From: a virus
IMG/VR virus record: IMGVR_UViG_3300009149_000329
Location: 1-22,045 of that record
DNA: 22,045 nt
Direction: 5' to 3' (one strand)
The notes beneath the pieces are model-generated. The model had not been told where the DNA came from. It saw only the letters and a program-made list of their open reading frames with translations, and ran no database searches. Position 1 is the stretch's first letter. Each line of letters opens with the position of its first letter. Shown here piece by piece: positions 6,966 to 22,045 of this stretch. The translations under genes and the position numbers were made by a program.

Positions 6966-8288
6966 TTAAAATCCAAACGGCTTTGCTTCACCTGAAAAAG
7001 ATTGAGAAACTGCTCTGCCCCCTACAGATTGGGTGTCCCCATCCTGAAAACCATCATCCCCAACCTCCTGATTTCCAGCCCCTTGAGAAGAGGGGTTTCT
7101 GACTCCCCCAAAAGATCCAAGGTTGGATCCTGACAAGGGGGTCCCATCAGAGTTTCCACGGAGCGGGCCTCTTGTTGCACTATCCCAGCCCCCAGAATAT
7201 TTGAACCCCCATCTGGAGTTCTTGTCAGACCCAGACCACGTATTTGGAGGGTCATTCATATATCTCCAATCCTCTGGCCCAGGATTCGGGGATTTCATTG
7301 GGAGCACAGCAAAACTGGACTGAGAAGTGTCAAAGGACTCGGAGACCACGAAATCTATCGAAAATTCAATCCCGCCCAACTGAGTGCTCTCATCATAAGA
7401 AAAGGACAGGTTCTCCATGTGTCCATAATAAACCCATTGGTCATAATGGATGGAGACAGATCCCACAGCATGGTTAGCATAGGACCCGTCAACCGTGTTG
7501 TAGATGTACCCGCTGTTCTGGTAAATGTGAAAGAGACCCATCAAGTTTTGCCAAGAGGCTGAATCCCTTTTGGATGCATATTGAACTCCCTTGCCCCCAG
7601 CCATGAAAGCTCCACACTTGGCAGTAATCTGCATCCGTACTTGTTCCTCACCCCATGCATGATGCACGTAACCATACCGGGTCCTATCCTGGTACTGTTG
7701 GATTTTGGTGAAGGTCTTATTGAAGGTTGTGGGGTTGATCAGCAAAGTCAATGGTGGTGTCTTCAAAATGGTGTTCAGCTGCCAAGCAATATCGATTGCT
7801 GAGTATGTGTCTGCAATAGCAGGCTCCCCTAAACGACTTGTTCCATACCCATCGCTATTCAAGGGCCTCCCCACTGCATCCATGTTGCGGTTGGAGCCGC
7901 TTCTGCTATTTTTGACAACAAACTCTTCCACACTGTCTGCCAAAGAATCCAGACTGACCATTCCAGATTGGGCAATTGCTTTCCTCGCTTCTGTGTAGCT
8001 GGAAAAAGTTTGGGAAGCTTTTGCAAAGACATTCAGATTGACATTGTTGGTAGAAGCCGCCAGGAAGCCGCCATCCCTCCCATAAATGATAGGAGGCTCC
8101 ACCCGCAGGACAAAGGGAGAAAGGACCCTCAGCATCTCATCAGATGCCGTGATAACTGTCCCCTCCTGCTCCTCATACTCAAAGGACATGTCAGGACTGA
8201 TTCTCAACCCTCGGAATGCATCCGGTGGTGGGGGCTTCCTGACGGACGCCTCTACAAGTTCCTGCTCTTTGGCAAAATCTTTGGCCAT
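6966..8288 (-). CDS. Baseplate protein, larger paralogue of the 215-residue neighbour
   Basis: The 440-residue product is probably a baseplate or tube-end structural protein. Residues about 180-325 contain LLINPTTFNKTFTK, GYVHHAWG, AFMAGG, LFHIYQNSGYIY and a final beta section ending FSIDFVVSE. These match, in order and spacing, segments of the 215-residue protein encoded just upstream, so the two share a domain. Similar NP..(n)..T..GGY..WG signatures occur in small baseplate proteins of other contractile phages (gp53/LysM-type or XkdP-like), but I cannot assign the exact family. The N-terminal 170 residues are an extra domain, and the last 100 are Gly/Ser/Asn-rich low complexity. The start codon lies one base after the preceding TAA, indicating coupled translation. 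Tail role is well supported by context; the specific name is not. Confidence 0.6.
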   Translation of the reverse strand: MAKDFAKEQELVEASVRKPPPPDAFRGLRISPDMSFEYEEQEGTVITASDEMLRVLSPFVLRVEPPIIYGRDGGFLAASTNNVNLNVFAKASQTFSSYTEARKAIAQSGMVSLDSLADSVEEFVVKNSRSGSNRNMDAVGRPLNSDGYGTSRLGEPAIADTYSAIDIAWQLNTILKTPPLTLLINPTTFNKTFTKIQQYQDRTRYGYVHHAWGEEQVRMQITAKCGAFMAGGKGVQYASKRDSASWQNLMGLFHIYQNSGYIYNTVDGSYANHAVGSVSIHYDQWVYYGHMENLSFSYDESTQLGGIEFSIDFVVSESFDTSQSSFAVLPMKSPNPGPEDWRYMNDPPNTWSGSDKNSRWGFKYSGGWDSATRGPLRGNSDGTPLSGSNLGSFGGVRNPSSQGAGNQEVGDDGFQDGDTQSVGGRAVSQSFSGEAKPFGF

Positions 8289-8289
8289 T

Positions 8290-8937
8290 TTACACTGCTC
8301 CGCTCAAAAAATCCATACCTGTCCTGGCATAGGGCTCTGTCTTGAATCTTTGGATTTCTTTTTCTATCGTGAATGAAGTAGTCATTTCAAAGAGATAGGG
8401 TCTGTCTGCTGCCTCATTTACCGTGAAGTTGTTGAACCATCCGGTGTAAATACCTCCATCAAATGTAATCTGGATGACCCCCTGGAAAACAATCTTCCCT
8501 GTCAGGTCATAGACAGAGCCATTGTTGTGAAACAGGGCCAGAAGATCCAGATATTTATCATAGGCAATGGTCTCTCTTCGGGTTCCACCTGTATTGAAGG
8601 CACCAAATCCTCCTGTGATGTTGGAAAGCCCGCTGAAGGCTCGCATGAACCCCCCAGAGACCATATTGAACTCGATAGTGTCCACTCCTTTGCCCCAGTG
8701 CTGCTCAACATAGCCTCCTTTTGTCTGAGTCCTTTCAATGACCTTGGTGTAGGTCACCGACATTGTTTTTGGGTTTGCATGGAGCACCATTTTCATGCCC
8801 TCTGGTAGGACACTGGTTTCCTGGTCTGGGCTCAACACATCAAACACAACAGGACGTACCCCCAAGGAGGTATTGAACTCATCCTCGGGAGATGTGAAGG
8901 CAGATTCGAATAATGGGGTTTGGTTAGACCTTGTCAT
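8290..8937 (-). CDS. Small baseplate / tube-terminal structural protein
   Basis: This 215-residue protein sits directly after the tape measure gene, where contractile phages usually encode the first baseplate component (gp53/gp54 or LysM-type). Its core (about residues 48-195) shows HANPKTMSVTYTK, GGYVEQHWG, GGFMRAF, LALFHNNGSVYD and a beta-rich end with FEMTTSFTIEKE. Arrays of this sort (NP.....K......GG.....G) are seen in proteins that bind the tube end. The same domain recurs in the next gene. No signal peptide or membrane segment is visible. The ATG begins one base after the tape measure TAA, and GGGGTG within the end of that gene may serve as Shine-Dalgarno. The assignment is by pattern and position, not by a decisive motif. 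Confidence 0.55.
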   Translation of the reverse strand: MTRSNQTPLFESAFTSPEDEFNTSLGVRPVVFDVLSPDQETSVLPEGMKMVLHANPKTMSVTYTKVIERTQTKGGYVEQHWGKGVDTIEFNMVSGGFMRAFSGLSNITGGFGAFNTGGTRRETIAYDKYLDLLALFHNNGSVYDLTGKIVFQGVIQITFDGGIYTGWFNNFTVNEAADRPYLFEMTTSFTIEKEIQRFKTEPYARTGMDFLSGAV

Positions 8938-8938
8938 C

Positions 8939-11900
8939 TTAGGAAATCACCCCGGCTTTCTGTGCCTTCTCAATGTTCCTCAAGACCCCTGGACCATCAT
9001 TGTACATGTGGTAAATGTTTGTCACTTGGCCTGCTCCTGCACCTCTTGCAACCCCCCCTTGTGCCCCTGCGCCGCCTTCTGTTGCTGTAATCAACCCACG
9101 GGAGGTTTTTTGGTCAATAGCGCCCCCTGGTTTCATGCCCGTTAGGACATCCCCAGAATCAATCCTCATGGCATCCACCCCAGAAGCCCCAAACCGAAGG
9201 ATGAAGTCATTCATCTTTTCTCCCGGAACGAGGGCTCGAATTTGGCGCATCCAAGGACCAAGAGACTCAGCACCCATTTCTCCAAACTCTTGAGCGACTG
9301 AGGATTTCCCCAAAGCACGAACTAATTGTGCAGAAATATTTCCAGATAATGCCATTCCCTGAGCCATCTTATCTAATTGCTCTGAGGTACCCCCCACACC
9401 GGCAGCTTCTAAGAGAGTTCTAGCTTTTTCAGCCCTCTCCTTATCTACTAGAGCTTTAGCTGTTTCCTTTGGAAGCTCATCCAAAGTACGTGCGATTTTC
9501 CTATAATCAATCAATATATTTCTCAGGTAACCAGCTTGCCTCACCTGAACTACATTTCTAGCTTCATCACTCTCAAGAGTTTTAGCAAGAATCTTTTCAG
9601 CTTCCGCTTGATAGTCCTCCTCTGAAAGATAGACACTAGCAAGCATTTTCATCTCTTCCTGAAACTTTGCCAGGATACCGGAGGAGGCCAAAGCAGATTG
9701 AGCAAGTTCTTCTAATTTCTCTTGGCCTGCCTCTCCTTGGGTCTTCAGGAAAATCTCCATTGCTTTTTCCACATTAATAGCTTGAGCACTCGTAGTTGTT
9801 GTTCTCTTGCCGTCTCTAGCTACATTAGTAACCCCTGCGGGTAATATCTCAGGAAGAAGTTCCTTGTTTACTACCGCTTCCAACCCTTGGCGTCCGTCAA
9901 AAGACTTGGTTTGTTGCTGAGCTATCTCTTGCCTCTTGGTGTTTGCCTCTATAATTAGATTCATTCTATCCATAGTCGCTCTTAGGGTCTCAATTTTACT
10001 CTCAACCTCTAGACGTTTTCCCCCTTGAGAGGTGTCCCTTTCCCTCTCTAGATCCCCAATTTGAGACAAAATTTCCCCTTTGGTGTTATTGATCTGTCGA
10101 TTCTGATCCTCCAAAGAACTTATCATTTGTTGTTGGATTTTTTGCTCAGCAGGCTCTAACCCAGGAGTCATCCAAGAAAGAATACTCCGAACGGACCCGA
10201 AGATCCCATCCAGGAAGTATTCCACCCCGATTTGGAGATACTTTGCCATTTCCGTAGTGTTCCTGGCCACTTGAAGAGCTGCTGCCTCCTGTTTACTCAT
10301 GGGAGTTTCTATAGCGTCAGAAAAGCGGTTTCCTTGAGCAAGCATGAACTGCTCGTAACTCTTGATCTGTTCATCCCCCACTGCAACAGCCCCCTCTACT
10401 ATAGAAGCCCCTACAATTTCCCATTTGTCTCCAATTTTTGCAACTGTTGCCCCATAAGTTGCAGCTAATTTAACACCATCCTCTGTCATTACCCCGGTTC
10501 TTTGGGCTTCTTTTTGAACATCTTGCAAAACCTCATATTGACCATGAGATATTTTGGACACTTCCTGCAAAATATGTAACTGTTCACCGCTGATTCCTGT
10601 TAGAGCTTCAAATGCCGCAGGCTCAAGGCCTTTCAACTCATGAACTGGAGCCTTTAATAAGGTGGCTGCCCTTTTTAGTTCCATTGCCAGTTTTGCTCCA
10701 GGTTCAAGTCCTTTTATTGCTACTGCTAAATCTGTCAACTTTCCTGTAGACCCTCTGGAAACATCTACCAGTTGACTCATCTGTCTCCCCATTTCATCTG
10801 GAAGAGTCTTTTGCAGATCTGCAAGAAGCATGTCCCTCTTTGTAAGATCTACTGCTTGAATTGCCTTTAATATTTTTTGACCTATTTCGGCCCTTGCCTC
10901 CTTCCCCATTGACCCCCGCTCGCCAGCTGCGGAAATCTGTCCAGGCTCCACATCAAATTCCACACCCGCCCGCTTAAACGCGGAATTTAGTGCAGAGGCC
11001 AGCTCGGTTTCAGACCCTTTAAAGCCCTCCCCTAATTTTCGTGCAAAATCTTTTGCTGTTGCGTCTGCACTCATTGAAACCATTTCCTGTACAAAAGGTT
11101 GGCCTGTCATCACAATTCTCTTTAGACGGGCTGTGAAACCCTCCTCAGTAAACCTCTTGGTCAAACTTTTGAAGAAATCCGGGGCTGCTTGGCTACCCAA
11201 AATCTTGGTCAACTGCATAAGCATTCCAGCAGCCTCCTCAAGACGGATATTGTAAAGACTCATCCCAGAAGTTGCCTGCAAAACCATCCCAAAGAATCTC
11301 TTGGTTCCATACCCAGACTGTACAGCAGCATCATAAATAGCACCAAACCGACTCTTTACCCCATCAAGTGTCAGGCCCAACTCTTCCATGTATGTGGCCA
11401 TGCTCTTTGCCATATCCCCCGCAGATTCGCCAAGAAGCTTGGAATATAGCAAAGCCGCCGAGGTAGCTTTTTGATATGCCTCCATATCTGTAGTGGCACC
11501 TTGAATCTGAGTTCTCATCTCTTTTAATGTGAAACCCGCTTCTGCATAAGATGCAAAAAGCTTAATCTGATCTTCAGCAACTGTACCCCATTTCATGTTA
11601 TTTTTCACATCCCCGGCAGCTTTTCTTACAGTATCCAAGGCATCTGAAACATCATAATAGCCATCTGCAAGATCCCCAATTGCGGCCCCATTCTCCAACA
11701 AAGTTTTGTTCCACTGCTTGGCTTGGTTGTCCACACTAATAAGGACCGCTGCAATTGCAGCAAACCCAGCAGCAATAGCCCCAATAGCGATTAAAGCGGG
11801 AGCAAGCTTACCAACCACACCCCCCAATTTTTTGATCCCTTTGGTTAACCCTGAATCATCCTCATTAGCCTTGGATGCTATCTTTGCTTTTTGGGCTCCA

Positions 11901-15025: not shown

Positions 15026-15886
15026 TTAGACAGCTACATTTAGAGCATCCTGAGCAAATAAGCTCGTTTGGCCACCGCCACCGATACCACGACCAGATTG
15101 TGCAATGTTGTTTTCAACACTCTCTGCAAACCGGATTGAACCCAGTTGGCCGATGGTAGGATCATTACCTGTAGCCAGGAACTCACCGTAAACACTGGCA
15201 AAATCGTGAGTGTCCGACGCTTGGACTTCTCCGGTTTCCATGATTACTGCGGCATCCTTGGCATAGGAAGTGTTCCAGCCAGAGAACCAACAGGCTTCAT
15301 AGATCGTGATGATTGCAGTGTGGCCTCTACCTATGGAGCCCGGTGCCCCGCCTGGGTAGTCTCCCCTTGGTACATCATTTGTAACCTGGGGGAATTCAAT
15401 GGATTTGACCCCACCATTGAAGTTTCCTGATTTAGCCCCATAGCCGTCATTAGCATACCCTAAATCATTATCTGCAAGAGTCGAGAATACCAACTGCTGC
15501 TCAATGTCAAAGGGCCACCTATGATGCGCCAAAGACCTCACAGGGCCATCCACTCCACCAGCATAACCCACAGCCTGCCAGAGGTTGCAGAGGTATAACA
15601 AAGTCCTCTCCAGGGATCCCTGAGTGGGCTCTGTTACCCCAGGCACGATTTCAGCAATCTTGTCGCCAAAACCAACACCACGAACAGGCTCAAGAGTCTT
15701 GCTCTGGGAGGGAGCGAAGGAGGACACCACACCCATTTGGTGCAATGCTGTGGTATCCCCATAATGCGGAGTCATTAAGCGTACCTTTTGGGACACTGCA
15801 CTTCGCGTATTTGGGGATGTGCCGAAGTCATAAAGGTACGAAGTACCACCGACACCGGACTGAGGATGATTGTCTAAGTTTGCCAT
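15026..15886 (-). CDS. Probable tail tube protein
   Basis: The 286-residue product is likely the inner tube subunit. It has a strong Shine-Dalgarno (GGAGG four bases before the ATG at 15884-15886), as expected for a highly expressed structural protein. The sequence is beta-rich. Segments such as GVGFGDKIAEIVPGVTEPTQ, followed by an RTLLYL helix, and IITIYEACWFSGWN followed by ETGEVQASDTHDF follow the layout I associate with tube proteins of large myophages: an early loop with a PG.te motif, a helix, and a late strand with a Cys-Trp pair. T4 gp19 is 163 residues, so this would be a longer version. In most myophages the tube directly follows the sheath; here the accessory cassette separates them. 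It could instead be another major virion protein, but the position before the chaperone-like and tape measure genes favours tube. Confidence 0.6.
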   Translation of the reverse strand: MANLDNHPQSGVGGTSYLYDFGTSPNTRSAVSQKVRLMTPHYGDTTALHQMGVVSSFAPSQSKTLEPVRGVGFGDKIAEIVPGVTEPTQGSLERTLLYLCNLWQAVGYAGGVDGPVRSLAHHRWPFDIEQQLVFSTLADNDLGYANDGYGAKSGNFNGGVKSIEFPQVTNDVPRGDYPGGAPGSIGRGHTAIITIYEACWFSGWNTSYAKDAAVIMETGEVQASDTHDFASVYGEFLATGNDPTIGQLGSIRFAESVENNIAQSGRGIGGGGQTSLFAQDALNVAV

Positions 15887-15938
15887 GTTGCCTCCAACAA
15901 AGGAACGGTAGCTACACTACTACACGTGAAATATAGAC

Positions 15939-15973
15939 ACTCCACCGACCCCAAAATAAGGGATCGGTGGAGT
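15939..15973 (-). terminator. Hairpin closing the VIT-vWA operon (U-tract-poor terminator candidate)
   Basis: ACTCCACCGA and TCGGTGGAGT form a perfect 10-bp stem, extended after one mismatch by CCC/GGG around the loop CAAAATAA. It lies just after the TAG stop of the VIT-vWA gene and before the tube gene. The stem is very stable, but neither strand has a run of uridines after it, so it may be a weak or factor-dependent terminator, or a processing site that separates the two messages. Confidence 0.5.
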
Positions 15974-16005
15974 TCTGTTCCTATTGATGGAGGCTAAAAG
16001 GGTAA

Positions 16006-18519
16006 CTATTGGAGTGAGGAAAGAATTTTCCCCCAAATTTCTTGAGGTTCTTTTGTTACTTTTTCCCAGCAATCTTCCCAGCCCCCCTCTAATACTCTCC
16101 CTGAGAGGATTGCATGGATTAGAGAGTCTGCATCTTTTTTTGCAATTTCTTTGGTGGGGATGTTTTTTTCTAGGAAAGAAGCCATTCTTTTTCTTTGCCC
16201 GTCATAGGCTTTTTCTTCCTCTTCTTTTTGGAGGGACCTCAAAGCCAAGAGAGCTGTAGCGAGAAATTCAATGAAAGTGCCCCAAGCAGCAAAACCAAAA
16301 GCACTCCCATCATCCTCCAGCTTCAGAAGATCCGCCAAAAAGGAATCCCCTTTCACAAAAGTGATCTTCTCTGTGAGGGGGGCTCCGTGGTCAGACCCCC
16401 CGAGACACAGAGAATCCCAATCTGGATTTATTGCAGTCAAACCTGGGACTTTCCCCACGAATCCGTAAGAGCCCCCTGAAAGAGACTGGGTGCTACAGGA
16501 GACAGCAAAATTAGTGGGGTCACCAACCCCACTAAAGGATCTCATCATGCTCTGGCCCCTGACTGCATGCTTCATCCCGGAGCCCCCCATCATTGCCCTT
16601 ACATGGTTGACCACTACTGGCTGGGAAAAAGCCTGCTGCATTCCTTCTGGCATACCAACAGGGGCCACTACTTGCTTCATCTTTTTCCCCTCATCTCCCT
16701 TCCTCTTCACCACAGCACAATGAGATGCCTCTTTACTGGCCAGCCCGAAAGCCATAGAAACACCTTGAAGAGTTTCCCGGATTTCCTCTTTGCTCTCTTC
16801 CTCGCTCTCATAGTCCAAAGCAGATTCCAAGTCCTCAATCTCTCTTCCTGCCCATAAAAGAGCAATCAGACCATCTGGGGTCTTTGAAATCTTTGAGATT
16901 GGTACATCAATGGAGCCCCCGGACCAAGAGAACTTGATCCCAGTAGGAATTGCTCTCAAACCCCCCTTGTCGGTCACAATCACAGCCTTGCCTCCCCAAA
17001 TGGTCCCTACCTGGGAAATCTGAGAAGAGAGCCCACTCTTTTTCCGAATTCTGGCACTCACTCCCTCTCTGACTGGGAATTTAATGGCATTGAACATTTT
17101 GGTGGCCTCAAAACCCACATCCTCAGAAGACCCTACCATTCTCTGAATCCCACCTGTCTTACGAGCCAATTGGGCCAGGAACCGGTCTTGAGAGGCTATG
17201 CCAATGCCCATCACATGAACTATGATCTCCGTTTTCCGCACCCTCTCCATGATAGGCCCGGTCTCCCAGACTTGGCCGTCAGTCAGCAAGAAAATTTCAC
17301 CTTTTTTCCTCTTCAGGATTTTCTCTGCTGCTGCCAAACCGTCATCCAGGTCTGTCCCTCCCCGCGCCCCTATATTGGCGAGGAAGTCTACTGCTTTCTT
17401 CCGATTGTTTTTGGTAGCCTTCAAAAGCACAGAGGACAGTTCCTCAATTAGAGTATCAAAGGCCACAATACCAAACTCATCCTTGGGACCCAAGGCAGAG
17501 AGACACACAGAAAGAGCCAACTTAGCACTCTCGATAGGCTTGCCGCCCATAGAGCCAGATCTGTCTAGTACGAAAATGACTCTCCGAGGTTTTTCCTCAC
17601 CCTTAGGGATCATGGAAGACGGAATGATAGCTGACCAACGAGGAGCCTTTGGAGGGGTCTTCCCTCCTTTCTTTGCTGCCTTCCCCTTGAGAAAGCTCTT
17701 GTCCGCAAACAGAATAGGCTTCTCAGTCTTCCCTCTCACCTCAAGAACGAGATCCCGATTGGGAAGATCTGATGCCCCTGCCAAAACCACCTCTGCTGAT
17801 TTCCCGTCATCTCCAATGTTCACCTCCACCCTGTGAGAAGGAGACCCCACAGAAGCCAGGGGGACTCCTGAGTCCACATGGATTTTGAAGGATATAGCAT
17901 GGAGTCCTTTTTCACCTGTTTTCCATTCCGGCAAGATCAGATCCCCAAAAACCTCCTCTGGAAGTTCAATGGTTGAGCAGGATGCTTTGGCACTCTTGTG
18001 GTAAGAGGGAGCCAGGGTGAAGGGGAACCTGAACCTGAAGGAAGAATCTTGAGCATCCACCCCACAGAAGATCTCCAAGACCACCTTGACCTCTTCTCCT
18101 GGGGATAACTGACCCAATGTCAAGGTCATGACCCCATCGGAATAGGTCTCAGCCAAAGCGGACAGATGGCCGTCCTCGATTCCCTTCTCATAAGTCTCCC
18201 GTGCCTTTTCTTTTAGTTTCAGCTCTGATTTCACATCAAACCCAGAACCTTTGATATGAAACCTCCGAAGGGCTCCCGTCCGGGGAAGAGCAAAAGAGTA
18301 GAGAACCTCAAGAGGCATCTCCCCCTCACATTTGAAGGTATGAGTCACCTGCATCAAACCTCCTGCTGGAGTCACCCTCCCTGCCAAATGTAGGTGCTGC
18401 ATTGCCATGGGCACCTCTTTTTTTGTCACCGCATCTGTAAGCCAGGGGCCTCCAGGGTAGGGGGTTGGGAGGGGGCCATAGGTGGGTGGGGGATACACAT
18501 GCATGTAATTAACTGACAT
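16006..18519 (-). CDS. VIT and von Willebrand factor A domain protein (VWA5A-like, cytosolic)
   Basis: The 837-residue protein has a full VIT-vWA architecture. After a Pro-rich start, the VIT domain spans about residues 35-175 (beta strands around FALPRTGALRRF and LGQLSPGEEVKV). The vWA domain spans about 310-480 with an intact MIDAS metal site: D319, S321 and S323 (DRSGSMG), T389 and D414 (LLTDG). The next part (ALLWAGREIEDLESAL, EIRETLQGVSMAFGLASKEA, VVAPVGMPEGM) follows the conserved order of VIT-vWA proteins, and about 715-785 resembles their C-terminal helical region. No signal peptide, membrane anchor or sortase motif is seen, so it should be cytosolic. VIT-vWA proteins mediate metal-dependent protein contacts; the partner here is unknown. 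AGGAG seven bases upstream supports the start. It is 24 bases downstream of the MerR gene, presumably one operon. Its role in a tail gene cluster is unexplained and it may be an accessory gene. Confidence 0.93.
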   Translation of the reverse strand: MSVNYMHVYPPPTYGPLPTPYPGGPWLTDAVTKKEVPMAMQHLHLAGRVTPAGGLMQVTHTFKCEGEMPLEVLYSFALPRTGALRRFHIKGSGFDVKSELKLKEKARETYEKGIEDGHLSALAETYSDGVMTLTLGQLSPGEEVKVVLEIFCGVDAQDSSFRFRFPFTLAPSYHKSAKASCSTIELPEEVFGDLILPEWKTGEKGLHAISFKIHVDSGVPLASVGSPSHRVEVNIGDDGKSAEVVLAGASDLPNRDLVLEVRGKTEKPILFADKSFLKGKAAKKGGKTPPKAPRWSAIIPSSMIPKGEEKPRRVIFVLDRSGSMGGKPIESAKLALSVCLSALGPKDEFGIVAFDTLIEELSSVLLKATKNNRKKAVDFLANIGARGGTDLDDGLAAAEKILKRKKGEIFLLTDGQVWETGPIMERVRKTEIIVHVMGIGIASQDRFLAQLARKTGGIQRMVGSSEDVGFEATKMFNAIKFPVREGVSARIRKKSGLSSQISQVGTIWGGKAVIVTDKGGLRAIPTGIKFSWSGGSIDVPISKISKTPDGLIALLWAGREIEDLESALDYESEEESKEEIRETLQGVSMAFGLASKEASHCAVVKRKGDEGKKMKQVVAPVGMPEGMQQAFSQPVVVNHVRAMMGGSGMKHAVRGQSMMRSFSGVGDPTNFAVSCSTQSLSGGSYGFVGKVPGLTAINPDWDSLCLGGSDHGAPLTEKITFVKGDSFLADLLKLEDDGSAFGFAAWGTFIEFLATALLALRSLQKEEEEKAYDGQRKRMASFLEKNIPTKEIAKKDADSLIHAILSGRVLEGGWEDCWEKVTKEPQEIWGKILSSLQ

Positions 18520-18543
18520 TCTTCTTCTCCTGTTGGATGGCGT

Positions 18544-18891
18544 CTAGACTCTCTTCTTTTTTTCATCAGAGGTCCCAGCACGGAAACAAACTTTCAAATC
18601 TGGACTGACACTTATTTCTTCCCAAAAATCACCCTTGAGCTGAAAAGGTAGTTGAACTTGTGATAGCTCGTCTGGATCTCCCCCATTCAGATAAAACCTA
18701 ATTTCCTGAAGGGTCAAGGTTTTTTCTTTCAATTCTTTAATTTGTGCCAAACGATCCTTGTGCTCATCTTCATACCAAGAATCCTTACTGGTCCCCCTTG
18801 GGGGTTGAAGGAGACTCAATGAGATGTAATAGCGGATGGTTCGGGCAGTGACCCCAGATTCTTTGCTCAGTTCAGAAATTGAATACTTCAT
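18544..18891 (-). CDS. MerR-family transcriptional regulator
   Basis: The 115-residue protein begins with a classic MerR winged helix-turn-helix (MKYSISELSKESGVTARTIR, then YYISLSLLQPP), a helix RLAQIKELKEKTLTLQEIRFYL, and a short C-terminal part of about 45 residues containing WEEISVSPDLKVCFR. The C-terminal part is too short for the usual ligand domain but resembles the small 'W..i.l.p.lel.vr' tails I associate with MerR proteins of this sort. No metal-binding Cys cluster is seen (one Cys only). I chose the ATG at 18889-18891 because GGAGGT lies six bases upstream; a TTG at 18912 would add seven residues but overlaps this site. The gene is first in an operon with VIT-vWA, under its own strong promoter. 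A dyad between the promoter boxes suggests autoregulation, and it may also affect the divergent gene. Confidence 0.9.
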   Translation of the reverse strand: MKYSISELSKESGVTARTIRYYISLSLLQPPRGTSKDSWYEDEHKDRLAQIKELKEKTLTLQEIRFYLNGGDPDELSQVQLPFQLKGDFWEEISVSPDLKVCFRAGTSDEKKKRV

Positions 18892-18913
18892 AGTGAGACC
18901 TCCAGTAAACAAC

Positions 18914-18941
18914 AGTATATGACAGTTTCAGCCAGTGTCAA
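18914..18941 (-). promoter_or_regulatory. Near-consensus sigma70 promoter of the MerR / VIT-vWA operon
   Basis: On the minus strand, TTGACA (18936-18941) and TATACT (18914-18919) are separated by 16 bases, so the -35 box is perfect and the -10 box differs from TATAAT at one base. Transcription would start about 15 bases before the GGAGGT of the MerR gene. A 16-base spacer is normal; classic MerR activators instead use long 19-20 base spacers, so repression is the more likely mode here. Confidence 0.8.
18920..18940. promoter_or_regulatory. Candidate MerR operator (TGACA-N11-TGTCA dyad)
   Basis: TGACA (18920-18924) and TGTCA (18936-18940) form an inverted repeat with 11 bases between. It fills the spacer and touches both promoter boxes. 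MerR-family dimers bind dyads located between the -35 and -10 boxes, so this is a natural binding site for the adjacent regulator. The dyad is short (5-bp arms), and part of it overlaps the -35 box, so chance cannot be excluded. Confidence 0.55.
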
Positions 18942-19048
18942 GAAAAACCAAAAATATTTCTCCATAGGAACAGAAAAAGTTTTTGCAAAAATCGAAAAAA
19001 TGGAGTAAAGGGAATAGTAAGACTTTTTCGCAACTGAAGGATAATCAA

Positions 19049-20770
19049 ATGAGTGATAACAAGAGTTTCTCAAAAATTCTAGATGAGGTCATTGGGCCGG
19101 ACCCTCCCCACTCAATGTATGAGAAAGAGGGTATGTATGATTTGGGGGATGGCTTTGAACCCGAGGATTTAGAGCCCGAGGATTCTTCCCTCATAGGATC
19201 CATTCAACCTCTCACAGACCCCGAAAAGGATACTGAAAAGCCCTCTGATCAGAGCCCCCCAGAAAACCCAACCCCTAAAGCCCCTAAGCAAGAAAGAAAA
19301 GACATGCAAAAGAAAAACGAAGTGAAAGTGTCCTCAGGCAAAGGAGACTTCCATAAGATCCATCTGACTCTCCTGATGGGATATGTAAAAATCCACCAAA
19401 AAACTGGAAGACCCGTTTCATATAGAGAACTTTTCGACTACTTACGGGCAGAAAGCCTTGCCTGGGGTGGCAAGTACCATGATGTTCAAGATACACAGGA
19501 CTTTTTTGCTGATATGGGTAGATTTGCAGGCCACCTATCAAAAGAGGGTCAACTGGAGAGCATCAAAACGGAAAGTTACACAGAACTCAATAGAATGGGA
19601 CATTTCTCTACCTATAAACCCTCAGACAAAGCCACGGAATACTATAAGCTCCTATATGAGACCCCCCCTATTTTCAAAATGCATTACCCAGAGTTTTGGG
19701 ATGGCCCAGAGATGGATGAGGAGGGCAAAAGGATACAAATTAAGTTCCCCTGGAGAGCCCAGGTCATGCTGAATATTTTCGCAACCATGAAAGAAAATAA
19801 CATAAGCCTCAAGAAATTTAGAGAGTTTCTTGACCCTACTATAACTTTGGGTCCGGGTCTGGACAGCCGCCTTTTCCGCCAACAAAGAATGAGGAAAGCT
19901 TTTAAGGCACTGAGAAAACTTAAGATTGCAAGAAATGAGAATGAGAGAGGGAAGGAAATAAAAGTAAAGATCCTTTGGAACAACCCAACTACCATTGAAT
20001 TCATGGAAAAAATCACAGAACCCATGATCAAAGCCCCGCCCACCCCTGTGGCAAGAGCAATGGTTTCTGTAGAAGACCTCTCTCCAGTGGTGGATACTAC
20101 CCCAGTGGTGGATACTACCCCAGTGAAGGTTGTTGCTCCTGTGATGGATATCACCCCAGTGAAGGCTGCCACCCCAGTGAAGGTTGTCGCTCCTGTGTCT
20201 CCCGTTCCAATGAAGATGGATGCTCCTGATCAACTAAAAGTAGGGGATGGGGCATTTATCTTTTCGAGGAAAGACATGGCGAGCCTCCAAAAAAAGATCC
20301 TCCGCATTAGAAGGACAGAGGATATATTGGAAACCAAAAATCCTATTCTCTCCAAAGATTTTGTGTGGATTTTCCTGGCAGGCATGGAGGCACTTACTAA
20401 GAGCCTAGAGAGAAAAGCTGAAGGGAAGCAAGCTGCTTTGATCCTAGAGAAAGAGGCTGAAAAGAAACAAGCCGAAGAGCGGGAACTAGAACTCTCCAGA
20501 CTGAAAAGAGAATATGCTAAAGAGGAGAGAAGCCTGGAAAATGAGACTGAAATAGCAGAGCAGATGAAAAAGAATGTCGCTGAAAGACTTTCCAATCTCT
20601 GCGACCTACAACGCAAAATGGATCTGGCTAGATTAGGCCAAAAGACTCCTGAGCCTCAAAAGACTCCTACTACCCAACCGACACCACAGAGTTTTTTCAC
20701 CCCAGATGCTCCCCCACCCCAACTGAACAGATTCCTCAGCAAGCTGAACAAAGATGAGGATGACAAGTAG
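19049..20770 (+). CDS. Orphan protein: possible tandem winged helices, PV-hexapeptide linker, coiled coil
   Basis: This 573-residue protein is the only plus-strand gene. I do not recognise its family. Residues 1-95 are acidic, Pro-rich and probably disordered. Residues 100-205 (LTLLMGYVKIHQKTGRPVSY, RELFDYLRAE, then a helical part ending SDKATEYYKLL) look like a winged helix-type fold. Residues 232-320 (RAQVMLNIFATMKENNISLK, MRKAFKALRKLKIARNE, IKVKILW) could be a second one. Residues 346-387 are seven hexapeptides beginning PV. Residues 448-530 are a strong charged coiled coil, and the end is Pro/Gln-rich. The start is the ATG with GAAGGA seven bases upstream; an upstream TTG (18983) lacks such support. 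It ends in TAG before a strong terminator. A DNA-binding or scaffold role is possible but not shown. No signal peptide or membrane segment is seen. Confidence 0.85.
   Translation: MSDNKSFSKILDEVIGPDPPHSMYEKEGMYDLGDGFEPEDLEPEDSSLIGSIQPLTDPEKDTEKPSDQSPPENPTPKAPKQERKDMQKKNEVKVSSGKGDFHKIHLTLLMGYVKIHQKTGRPVSYRELFDYLRAESLAWGGKYHDVQDTQDFFADMGRFAGHLSKEGQLESIKTESYTELNRMGHFSTYKPSDKATEYYKLLYETPPIFKMHYPEFWDGPEMDEEGKRIQIKFPWRAQVMLNIFATMKENNISLKKFREFLDPTITLGPGLDSRLFRQQRMRKAFKALRKLKIARNENERGKEIKVKILWNNPTTIEFMEKITEPMIKAPPTPVARAMVSVEDLSPVVDTTPVVDTTPVKVVAPVMDITPVKAATPVKVVAPVSPVPMKMDAPDQLKVGDGAFIFSRKDMASLQKKILRIRRTEDILETKNPILSKDFVWIFLAGMEALTKSLERKAEGKQAALILEKEAEKKQAEERELELSRLKREYAKEERSLENETEIAEQMKKNVAERLSNLCDLQRKMDLARLGQKTPEPQKTPTTQPTPQSFFTPDAPPPQLNRFLSKLNKDEDDK
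20084..20209 (+). repeat. Seven tandem 18-bp units encoding PV-starting hexapeptides
   Basis: Seven in-frame 18-bp units encode PVVDTT, PVVDTT, PVKVVA, PVMDIT, PVKAAT, PVKVVA and PVSPVP. The first two are identical at DNA level (CCAGTGGTGGATACTACC, 20084-20101 and 20102-20119); units 3 and 6 differ slightly. The identical first pair points to recent slippage or duplication. It probably forms an extended, flexible linker between the N-terminal domains and the coiled coil. Confidence 0.85.
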
Positions 20771-20787
20771 AGGCTCCTATGCCCAAT

Positions 20788-20820
20788 AAAAAAGCCCTCC
20801 CGACTTGGGAGGGCTTTTTG
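20788..20820. terminator. Strong bidirectional rho-independent terminator
   Basis: GCCCTCCC (20794-20801) pairs with GGGAGGGC (20807-20814) around the loop GACTT, with six A before and five T after the stem, so a uridine run follows it in both directions. It ends the plus-strand orphan gene (stop at 20770) and the minus-strand sheath gene (stop at 20842), insulating the cassette from the sheath transcript. Confidence 0.93.
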
Positions 20821-20841: not shown

Positions 20842-22045
20842 TTACAGACTGGACCTGAGATGGAAGGTCAAAATGAGGTAGAGAAGTGGGAACACCGGGC
20901 TGTAGTATGCCTCGACTTCGCCAACTGTTGGGTCATCCACTGCCACGCTGGCTTTGACCCCAGTGTATGCTGTGATGATCTGGTTCTTGACCATGCCCTT
21001 GAGCATCATCGCCAACCGACCCTCTACCTGACCCAAGATGCCGGACAGGAACTTGATCCCAATGAACGCCTCCAGGGTGTTCCTGGATTGCCTTTGAACC
21101 TCATCCGCAATCGGGATGATGGTAGGTGTCTTGGTCAGGATGTTGGTCATATCTGTGGTCAGTCCATGACGTACCCGCAAGAAGGGGTAGCGCCCCTCCA
21201 ACACGGTCACACCAGCTGTGGCCACTTGGTTCTGCTCTACTGCATCCAGATTTCTGCCTAGCTGGGTGAACCCAACCAAATTCCGTCCTGTCCATGGAGT
21301 AGCCACATCCACATTGGGGGATGTGATCGACCCAATCAACCCAGCGGCCATCATGGGACCATCCACCAAGGATTCTTTGCTGGTCCCAACAGCGTCAGTG
21401 AGGGTGATTGTTGCTACGTCCGGGTAAACCACTCTCATCCTGGTGTGCCCAAGGGTTCTGGCCAGGGCTTTTACTGCCTCTGGGTTGGATCCCGCAGAGA
21501 GCCCTATGATAGAAGTTCTCTCTGACCGGTACCTGATCCCAGACATCTTGACATCAGAGTTCTTGAGATATGTGTACAAATCAGTACTATCACCCCTCAA
21601 TGGAGTAATGATGTCAGGGACTGCTTGACCTGGAAGGACACCTTCCAACTCATCGATGGCGTCCCTGTAGGAGACCAAGCTAGCCTTTGTCTCGCCTGTC
21701 GCCTTCTGTACCTGCTTAGCTCCAATCAAGATGGCACCGTTCAGGATGCACAGATAGGATGCCAGGGACAGTGGGGAGTCTGTGCTGACTGGTCCGTAAG
21801 AGGATTCCACTGCGGAAATCTTCGTGAAGAAAGAGGTTGTGAAATCCTGCTTCGTGTAAATATAAGTGGTGTAGTACAAGTCGCCAACTGCGGGCTCCTC
21901 GCCACCTCTTTCGAAGGACTCTACAATTGCAGTGTCTCCCGTTGCCACACTGCTGGTATCCGTCACCCTCAATTCCAATCCTGGAAGAGCATTGTGAGGG
22001 ATATTGGCGTCAGTAATGAACGTTGTGGAAACATTGATCCTGAAA
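20842..22045 (-). CDS. Tail sheath protein (C-terminal 400 residues; start beyond the window)
   Basis: The reading frame is open to the right edge, so the gene starts outside the window. A TTG at 21976-21978 lies in frame but 22 more sense codons precede it (ending ITDANIPHNALPG), so it is unlikely to be the start. The C-terminal part is a typical sheath domain: LVDGPMMAAGLIG, GRNLVGFTQLGRNLDAVEQN, then FLRVRHGLTTDMTNILTKTP, then EVQRQSRNTLEAFIGIKFLS and a closing beta strand (FPLLYLILTFHL). The sheath surrounds the tube and contracts to drive it through the cell envelope, so the tail is contractile. It ends in TAA, and the bidirectional terminator follows 22 bases later. Sheath and tube are normally adjacent, so the nearly 5-kb gap to the tube is unusual. 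Confidence 0.94.
   Translation of the reverse strand, partial: FRINVSTTFITDANIPHNALPGLELRVTDTSSVATGDTAIVESFERGGEEPAVGDLYYTTYIYTKQDFTTSFFTKISAVESSYGPVSTDSPLSLASYLCILNGAILIGAKQVQKATGETKASLVSYRDAIDELEGVLPGQAVPDIITPLRGDSTDLYTYLKNSDVKMSGIRYRSERTSIIGLSAGSNPEAVKALARTLGHTRMRVVYPDVATITLTDAVGTSKESLVDGPMMAAGLIGSITSPNVDVATPWTGRNLVGFTQLGRNLDAVEQNQVATAGVTVLEGRYPFLRVRHGLTTDMTNILTKTPTIIPIADEVQRQSRNTLEAFIGIKFLSGILGQVEGRLAMMLKGMVKNQIITAYTGVKASVAVDDPTVGEVEAYYSPVFPLLYLILTFHLRSSL

What the first reader, a model, noticed from the sequence alone, without database searches (positions are those of the whole stretch)
15939..20820. A self-contained three-gene cassette (MerR, VIT-vWA, orphan winged-helix/coiled-coil protein) inserted between tail sheath and tube
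Sheath and tube are normally adjacent and co-expressed. Here 5 kb separates them, with two non-structural genes on the tail strand and one on the opposite strand. The cassette has its own promoter, a candidate operator, a strong bidirectional terminator at one end and a hairpin at the other, the classic shape of a phage moron. The MerR/VIT-vWA pair next to an unrecognised DNA-binding-like protein is a possible undescribed accessory or conflict system. No MoxR AAA+ ATPase, the usual partner of conflict-type vWA proteins, is visible nearby, so it would be a different design.
Basis: partly seen in the sequence, partly recalled or inferred. Interest (0 to 1): 0.8.

Follow-up and report, generated by a model that had tools for sequence, protein, structure and literature searches.

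The report
Bacterial MerR–VIT-vWA operon in huge phages
Between two tail genes, a group of very large phages carries a small self-regulating gene pair related to one found in bacteria (a switch protein and a large binding protein built like animal inter-alpha-inhibitor and vault-associated proteins); phages in the group often lack it, so it is optional cargo rather than a part of the tail, and its job is still unknown.

Summary
A 4.95-kb block separates the tail sheath (ends 20842) from the putative tube (starts 15886). It holds MerR→VIT-vWA on the tail strand and a 573-aa orphan (P573) on the other. The three-gene interpretation holds for two genes. MerR→VIT-vWA is a two-gene operon, apparently undescribed: all 19 phage loci and all 40 bacterial loci with upstream sequence have MerR directly before VIT-vWA. 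A dyad over the promoter (CTTGACASTGKC) is shared. In 14 of 22 bacterial genomes it occurs once, always at this operon, so MerR looks like a dedicated autoregulator. In phages the pair sits only between sheath and tube, within one clade (18 of 26 members), with at least 8 changes of state and two frameshifted VIT-vWA copies that keep MerR. The tube has its own late-promoter-like YCTATA motif, so the cassette looks transcriptionally insulated. VIT-vWA models confidently as a cytosolic ITIH/VWA5A-like, MIDAS-bearing scaffold; no MoxR partner was found. P573 has no detectable relative and is not a shown module member; sister phages put a different DNA-binding-like protein in its place. Most likely: an accessory, autoregulated adaptor operon acquired once and repeatedly lost. 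What VIT-vWA binds is unknown.

The parts
20842..22044 (-). tail sheath gene, 3' part (runs off the window)
   Evidence: phrog_2839 tail sheath E 1e-23
20789..20819 (.). bidirectional terminator-like hairpin (14 pairs with T-run) between the convergent sheath and P573 genes
19049..20770 (+). P573, orphan 573-aa protein with long C-terminal coiled coil; probably not part of the conserved module
   Evidence: no relatives; AF2 pLDDT 45, confident only in the helix at about residues 460-530
18914..18942 (-). sigma70-type promoter (TTGACA-16-TATACT) overlapped by the conserved MerR operator CTTGACACTGGC (18931-18942)
   Evidence: same box in bacterial relatives
18544..18891 (-). MerR-type regulator, 115 aa, ATG with GGAGG Shine-Dalgarno; conserved C-terminal helix missing here
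   Evidence: Pfam MerR_1 3e-17; alignment
16006..18519 (-). VIT-vWA protein, 837 aa; VIT about 18073-18384, vWA with intact MIDAS about 17137-17583, disordered loop, C-terminal helical domain about 16009-16344
15939..15973 (-). terminator-like hairpin after VIT-vWA
   Evidence: 14-pair stem
15932..15937 (-). late-promoter-like motif TCTATA before the tube gene
   Evidence: YCTATA in 18 of 23 tube upstream regions, 2.2% of random 120-mers
15026..15886 (-). putative tail tube gene
   Evidence: conserved in 77 IMG/VR loci; identity as tube by position only

Best explanation
An autoregulated two-gene operon (merR, VIT-vWA) of a kind found in bacteria was acquired once by the ancestor of a clade of huge phages. 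It is kept as optional cargo at a boundary between transcription units, between the sheath terminator and the tube's own late-type promoter. MerR binds the dyad over its own -35 element and represses or tunes merR-VIT-vWA from a host-type promoter, independently of the tail genes. The product is a soluble VIT-vWA scaffold that binds protein ligand(s) through its MIDAS and VIT faces and probably acts as an adaptor on host or competitor proteins during infection. P573 is a separate orphan gene next to it. Shown in silico: gene pairing, recurrence, operator conservation and uniqueness, phylogeny, patchy presence, fold. Inferred: repression by MerR, promoter timing, direction of the gains and losses, and the adaptor role.
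For: MerR directly upstream of VIT-vWA in every phage locus and in 40 of 43 bacterial loci, the other 3 being truncated inside VIT-vWA. The bacterial operator occurs once in each of 14 of 22 genomes, always at this operon, none in the reversed control; the box is within 250 bp upstream of MerR in 35 of 35 bacterial and 14 of 18 phage loci. Same site in all phages. Confined to one 26-phage clade, 18 of 26, at least 8 changes. Frameshifted VIT-vWA with MerR open in L012 and L022. Phage copies form one clade, 100 SH-aLRT, with one bacterial sequence inside. Tube promoter motif. In bacteria no conserved third neighbour and patchy presence: full-strength matches in 11 of 61 genomes of one family. 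AF2 model pLDDT 82, pTM 0.81; ITIH1 Foldseek E 2e-29. No signal-peptide-like N terminus, hydrophobic stretches only marginal.
Against: No expression or binding data. The fixed site next to the tube in every copy could mean a tail-related role. MerR could activate rather than repress. Loss counts rest on metagenomic fragments, and the tree cannot tell gain from loss; the shuffle control was uninformative because unlabelled rows were not counted. The bacterial set was fetched with peptide patterns conserved in phage copies, so it is a biased sample of close relatives, and the family sample contains several genomes already known to be positive.
Confidence: 0.6

Rival explanations
1. VIT-vWA is a virion-assembly co-chaperone or minor tail protein, hence its constant place between sheath and tube.
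For: Always directly upstream of the tube in phages; vWA proteins with MoxR assist virion assembly in other viruses (PMC7824862).
Against: Absent or frameshifted in many close relatives that keep the tail genes, e.g. L015 against the closely similar L095; bacterial homologs stand alone with no tail genes; host-type promoter separate from the tube's motif; no MoxR.
Confidence: 0.15
2. A toxin-antitoxin-like or superinfection-exclusion module: MerR is the autoregulating partner and VIT-vWA the effector.
For: Two-gene unit with one operator per genome; patchy in bacteria and in phages; MerR-type antitoxins are known for PIN toxins (PMC2701414); MerR stays open where VIT-vWA is broken.
Against: No catalytic toxin domain in VIT-vWA; about 840 aa is large for a toxin; no PADLOC match; no addiction or exclusion data.
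Confidence: 0.15
3. A stress operon: MerR senses a metal, redox or small-molecule signal through its conserved C-terminal domain and induces a protective VIT-vWA protein; phages carry it to buffer the host.
For: MerR family precedent; conserved C-terminal motif dVxVxVRxDxxPWR in MerR relatives; an Hsp20-like gene adjoins the pair in L089 and L090.
Against: Below every metal- and redox-MerR equivalog cut-off; operator overlaps the -35 rather than lying in a 19-20 bp spacer; Hsp20 in only two phage lineages.
Confidence: 0.15
4. One reading: MerR, VIT-vWA and P573 act together.
For: A DNA-binding-like protein (winged-helix-like, partly with an integrase-SAM-like domain) sits in the same place on the opposite strand in sister phages L094, L023, L024, L026 and, as a distantly related family, in L012, L015, L016, L021 (hhalign between the two families E 1.3e-5).
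Against: P573 shows no homology to either family (226 of 1000 shuffles score as well); no such neighbour in bacteria or in L039, where MerR follows the sheath directly.
Confidence: 0.08

Closest known systems
Cytosolic VWA5A/Dictyostelium Vwa1 and ITIH/PARP4 VIT-vWA proteins
   Same: VIT then MIDAS vWA then hybrid beta-domain, disordered loop and C-terminal domain; ITIH1 Foldseek E 2e-29, ITIH4 and PARP4 profile hits 3e-42 and 1e-30; binding-hub role proposed for Vwa1 (PMC10539598)
   Different: Prokaryotic and phage-borne, paired with MerR; no PARP domain; the full-length viral structural matches listed are in giant eukaryotic viruses (Fadolivirus, Terrestrivirus, Tupanvirus), not phages
MoxR-vWA(-VMAP) conflict and assembly systems (PMC7159879, PMC7824862)
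   Same: MIDAS-type vWA protein in a prokaryotic accessory locus
   Different: No MoxR ATPase in the locus or in 15 related contigs; has VIT and a MerR partner instead
Marine proteobacterial sortase target proteins (TIGR03788)
   Same: VIT + vWA, distant homology (209 bits, E 1e-61)
   Different: Far below the 551.65-bit cut-off; no signal-peptide-like N terminus
TnrA/GlnR/HspR-type MerR autoregulators
   Same: Short MerR-type HTH protein; inverted-repeat operator over its own promoter (HspR and TnrA models hit at 23.6 and 21.4 bits; operator comparison from own knowledge)
   Different: Below those models' cut-offs; operator found at one operon only; own C-terminal domain; VIT-vWA partner
Phage morons (accessory genes with own promoter and terminator)
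   Same: Own promoter, terminators at both ends, absent from close relatives
   Different: Fixed at one site within one clade; benefit to the host untested

Membership tests
VIT-vWA (ITIH/PARP4/VWA5A-type) superfamily | VIT domain followed by a MIDAS-intact vWA | tested here: met
   Pfam VIT and vWA above cut-off; D319, S321, S323, T389, D414 conserved
VIT-vWA (ITIH/PARP4/VWA5A-type) superfamily | ITIH-like multidomain fold | tested here: met
   AF2 pLDDT 82; 6fpy Foldseek E 2e-29; VIA Z 25, 486 residues aligned, rmsd 6.4
MoxR-vWA conflict systems | MoxR AAA+ ATPase partner | tested here: not met
   none in the window; PF07726 in 0 of 15 related phage contigs, rings in 13 of 14 control genomes; contigs may be incomplete
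TIGR03788 sortase-target proteins | score above the equivalog cut-off | tested here: not met
   209 against 551.65 bits
MerR family | N-terminal MerR HTH | tested here: met
   MerR_1 62.9 bits, cut-off 21.6
Classic metal/redox MerR activators | equivalog score and operator in a 19-20 bp promoter spacer | tested here: not met
   all equivalogs below cut-off; 16-bp spacer in the window, dyad over the -35
Phage moron | own promoter and terminator, absent from relatives at the same site | tested here: met
   in silico only:
Phage moron | expressed independently of lytic genes and benefits the host | not testable with these tools
   needs RNA-seq and fitness assays
Type II toxin-antitoxin | autoregulated two-gene operon | tested here: inconclusive
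   single operator per genome is consistent; binding untested
Type II toxin-antitoxin | toxic effector neutralised by its partner | not testable with these tools
   needs expression assays
Known anti-phage defence (PADLOC) | match to a defence-system protein | tested here: not met
   no PADLOC match for VIT-vWA; MerR hits only the HTH of mad1

The most novel reading that the evidence does not exclude
MerR–VIT-vWA is an undescribed class of autoregulated two-gene conflict or stress module in bacteria and huge phages: an ATPase-free, VWA5A-like scaffold that acts on host or rival-phage proteins and is selected as phage cargo.
Probability: 0.3. Interest if true: 0.75.

Novelty: new variant of a known kind. 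Interest (0 to 1): 0.52.

Why it matters
It identifies a compact, testable operon with a precise operator, shared by bacteria and huge phages and held by the phages at one tail locus. It gives a prokaryotic and viral counterpart of eukaryotic cytosolic VIT-vWA scaffolds, and suggests that the sheath-tube junction in these phages is an insulated cargo site where accessory genes can be sought.

Tried and rejected
P573 homologs: viral scan, 47 related contigs, hhalign against two positional families and shuffled HMM scores all negative; its single-sequence AF2 model is unusable apart from the coiled coil. Phage-isolate search with VIT-vWA: no match. Plasmids: only distant sortase-target-like proteins, 22-27% identity. 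Regulon idea: no second operator in bacterial genomes; 3 phage hits away from the operon (G003, G014, G043) are about what chance gives for a 12-mer over some 5 Mb. Tube identity by PHROG and PDB profiles: no match. Rfam: nothing in the window. Literature searches found no description of a MerR–VIT-vWA pair; the library is incomplete. A fold for the C-terminal domain was not searched alone.

Full report
Observation. The window is a 22-kb linear virus fragment. Tail genes lie on the minus strand. The sheath (phrog_2839, E 1e-23) ends at 20842 and the putative tube begins at 15886. In between are P573 (+, 19049-20770), MerR (-, 18544-18891) and VIT-vWA (-, 16006-18519), with Pfam support for MerR and VIT-vWA. 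Stem-loops stand at 20789-20819 and 15939-15973, and the best promoter-like site of the region is at 18941-18914.

Relatives. The tube protein finds 77 loci in IMG/VR, many on contigs of 100-600 kb. Mapping the window's proteins onto them shows that the sheath-tube gap ranges from about 150 bp (L074, L077) to about 11 kb and holds variable cargo: Hsp20-like, RNA ligase, P-loop kinase, metallophosphatase and zinc-finger/HTH proteins among others. Every phage VIT-vWA lies in this gap, directly before the tube, with MerR before it. Searching whole records finds no copy elsewhere.

Operon. A scan of bacterial genomes with the VIT-vWA alignment gives 43 loci, mostly Acidobacteriota, also Hydrogenedentota, Planctomycetota, Armatimonadota, Verrucomicrobiota and proteobacterial MAGs. 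All 40 that reach upstream carry the same MerR immediately before VIT-vWA; in one (L115) both are in a single open frame. No third neighbour is conserved. A sample of one bacterial family has full-strength matches in 11 of 61 genomes, so the operon is patchy.

Operator. Upstream regions share TTGACA(C/G)TG(T/G)C overlapping the -35. The bacterial form GACASTACTTGACASTGTC, one mismatch allowed, occurs once in 14 of 22 genomes and never in the reversed control; each hit is at the start of MerR-VIT-vWA. The TTGACA(C/G) box is within 250 bp of MerR in 35 of 35 bacterial and 14 of 18 phage loci, against 4% of random stretches; three of the four phage misses (L083, L090, L096) have an N-terminal extension of MerR, so the measuring point lay too far downstream. 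This argues for a dedicated autoregulator. That MerR represses is inferred from the position of the dyad.

Evolution. On a sheath+tube+g4 tree VIT-vWA is confined to one clade of 26 phages (SH-aLRT 99), present in 18, with at least 8 changes of state. L095 has it while its closest row, L015, lacks it. In L012 and L022 VIT-vWA carries internal deletions that shift the frame, while MerR is open. Phage VIT-vWA proteins form one clade (100) with one Myxococcota-type MAG sequence inside; that MAG's contig carries an ABC-transporter gene next door and no tube homolog was found in its genome. One acquisition followed by repeated loss is the simplest reading; the tree alone cannot orient the changes.

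Insulation. YCTATA stands within 120 bp upstream of 18 of 23 tube genes against 2.2% of random stretches. In the window it follows the hairpin at 15939-15973. The tube therefore seems to have its own late-type promoter, while MerR-VIT-vWA has a host-type one. The timing is inferred.

Protein. The VIT-vWA model (36 sequences) has pLDDT 82 and pTM 0.81, with a disordered loop at 631-724 and a C-terminal helical domain. ITIH1 is the best solved match (Foldseek E 2e-29; VIA Z 25 over 486 residues, rmsd 6.4); ITIH4 and PARP4 are found by profile. The full-length viral structural matches are giant-virus proteins. There is no signal-peptide-like N terminus, and hydrophobic stretches are marginal. No MoxR was found in 15 related contigs. 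In Dictyostelium a cytosolic VIT-vWA protein of this type is proposed as a binding hub (PMC10539598).

P573. No relative was found and the model is poor. Sister phages L094, L023, L024 and L026 have at the same place and strand proteins with winged-helix-like parts, and in L024 and L094 an integrase-SAM-like domain. A second family (L012, L015, L016, L021 and others) is remotely related to these. P573 cannot be tied to either. It is best treated as separate cargo.

Verdict. Real, recurrent and regulated as a unit of two genes; accessory rather than structural; of bacterial kinship; function open.

Noticed in passing
L008/L009 6489-7214, L023 6669-7355, L026 6557-7285: MerR carries an N-terminal T5orf172/MUG113 (GIY-YIG-like) domain in these phages (Pfam scan on L026; the others by alignment).
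   Followed up: partly
window 15932-15937 and tube upstream regions of related loci: YCTATA late-promoter-like motif about 36 times more frequent than in random stretches; may mark late genes across this phage clade.
   Followed up: partly
L089 6327-6752 and L090 8689-9105: Hsp20-like small heat-shock gene on the opposite strand just upstream of MerR.
   Followed up: no
L012 about 7100-9000, L022 8262-9477: VIT-vWA is broken by internal deletion with frameshift while MerR stays open.
   Followed up: yes
L110 5422-8325: A Deltaproteobacteria/Myxococcota MAG copy nests inside the phage VIT-vWA clade: possible phage-to-bacterium transfer or misbinning.
   Followed up: partly
L087 7308-8938 and L081 6741-7796: RNA ligase-like genes in the sheath-tube gap, in L087 next to a P-loop (polynucleotide-kinase-like) gene.
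   Followed up: no
window 18544-18600: The window's MerR ends before the conserved C-terminal PWR motif and helix seen in its relatives.
   Followed up: no
window 20085-20210: P573 has a degenerate Val/Pro-rich repeat (VVDTTPV, VKVVAPV) joining its N-terminal part to the coiled coil.
   Followed up: no
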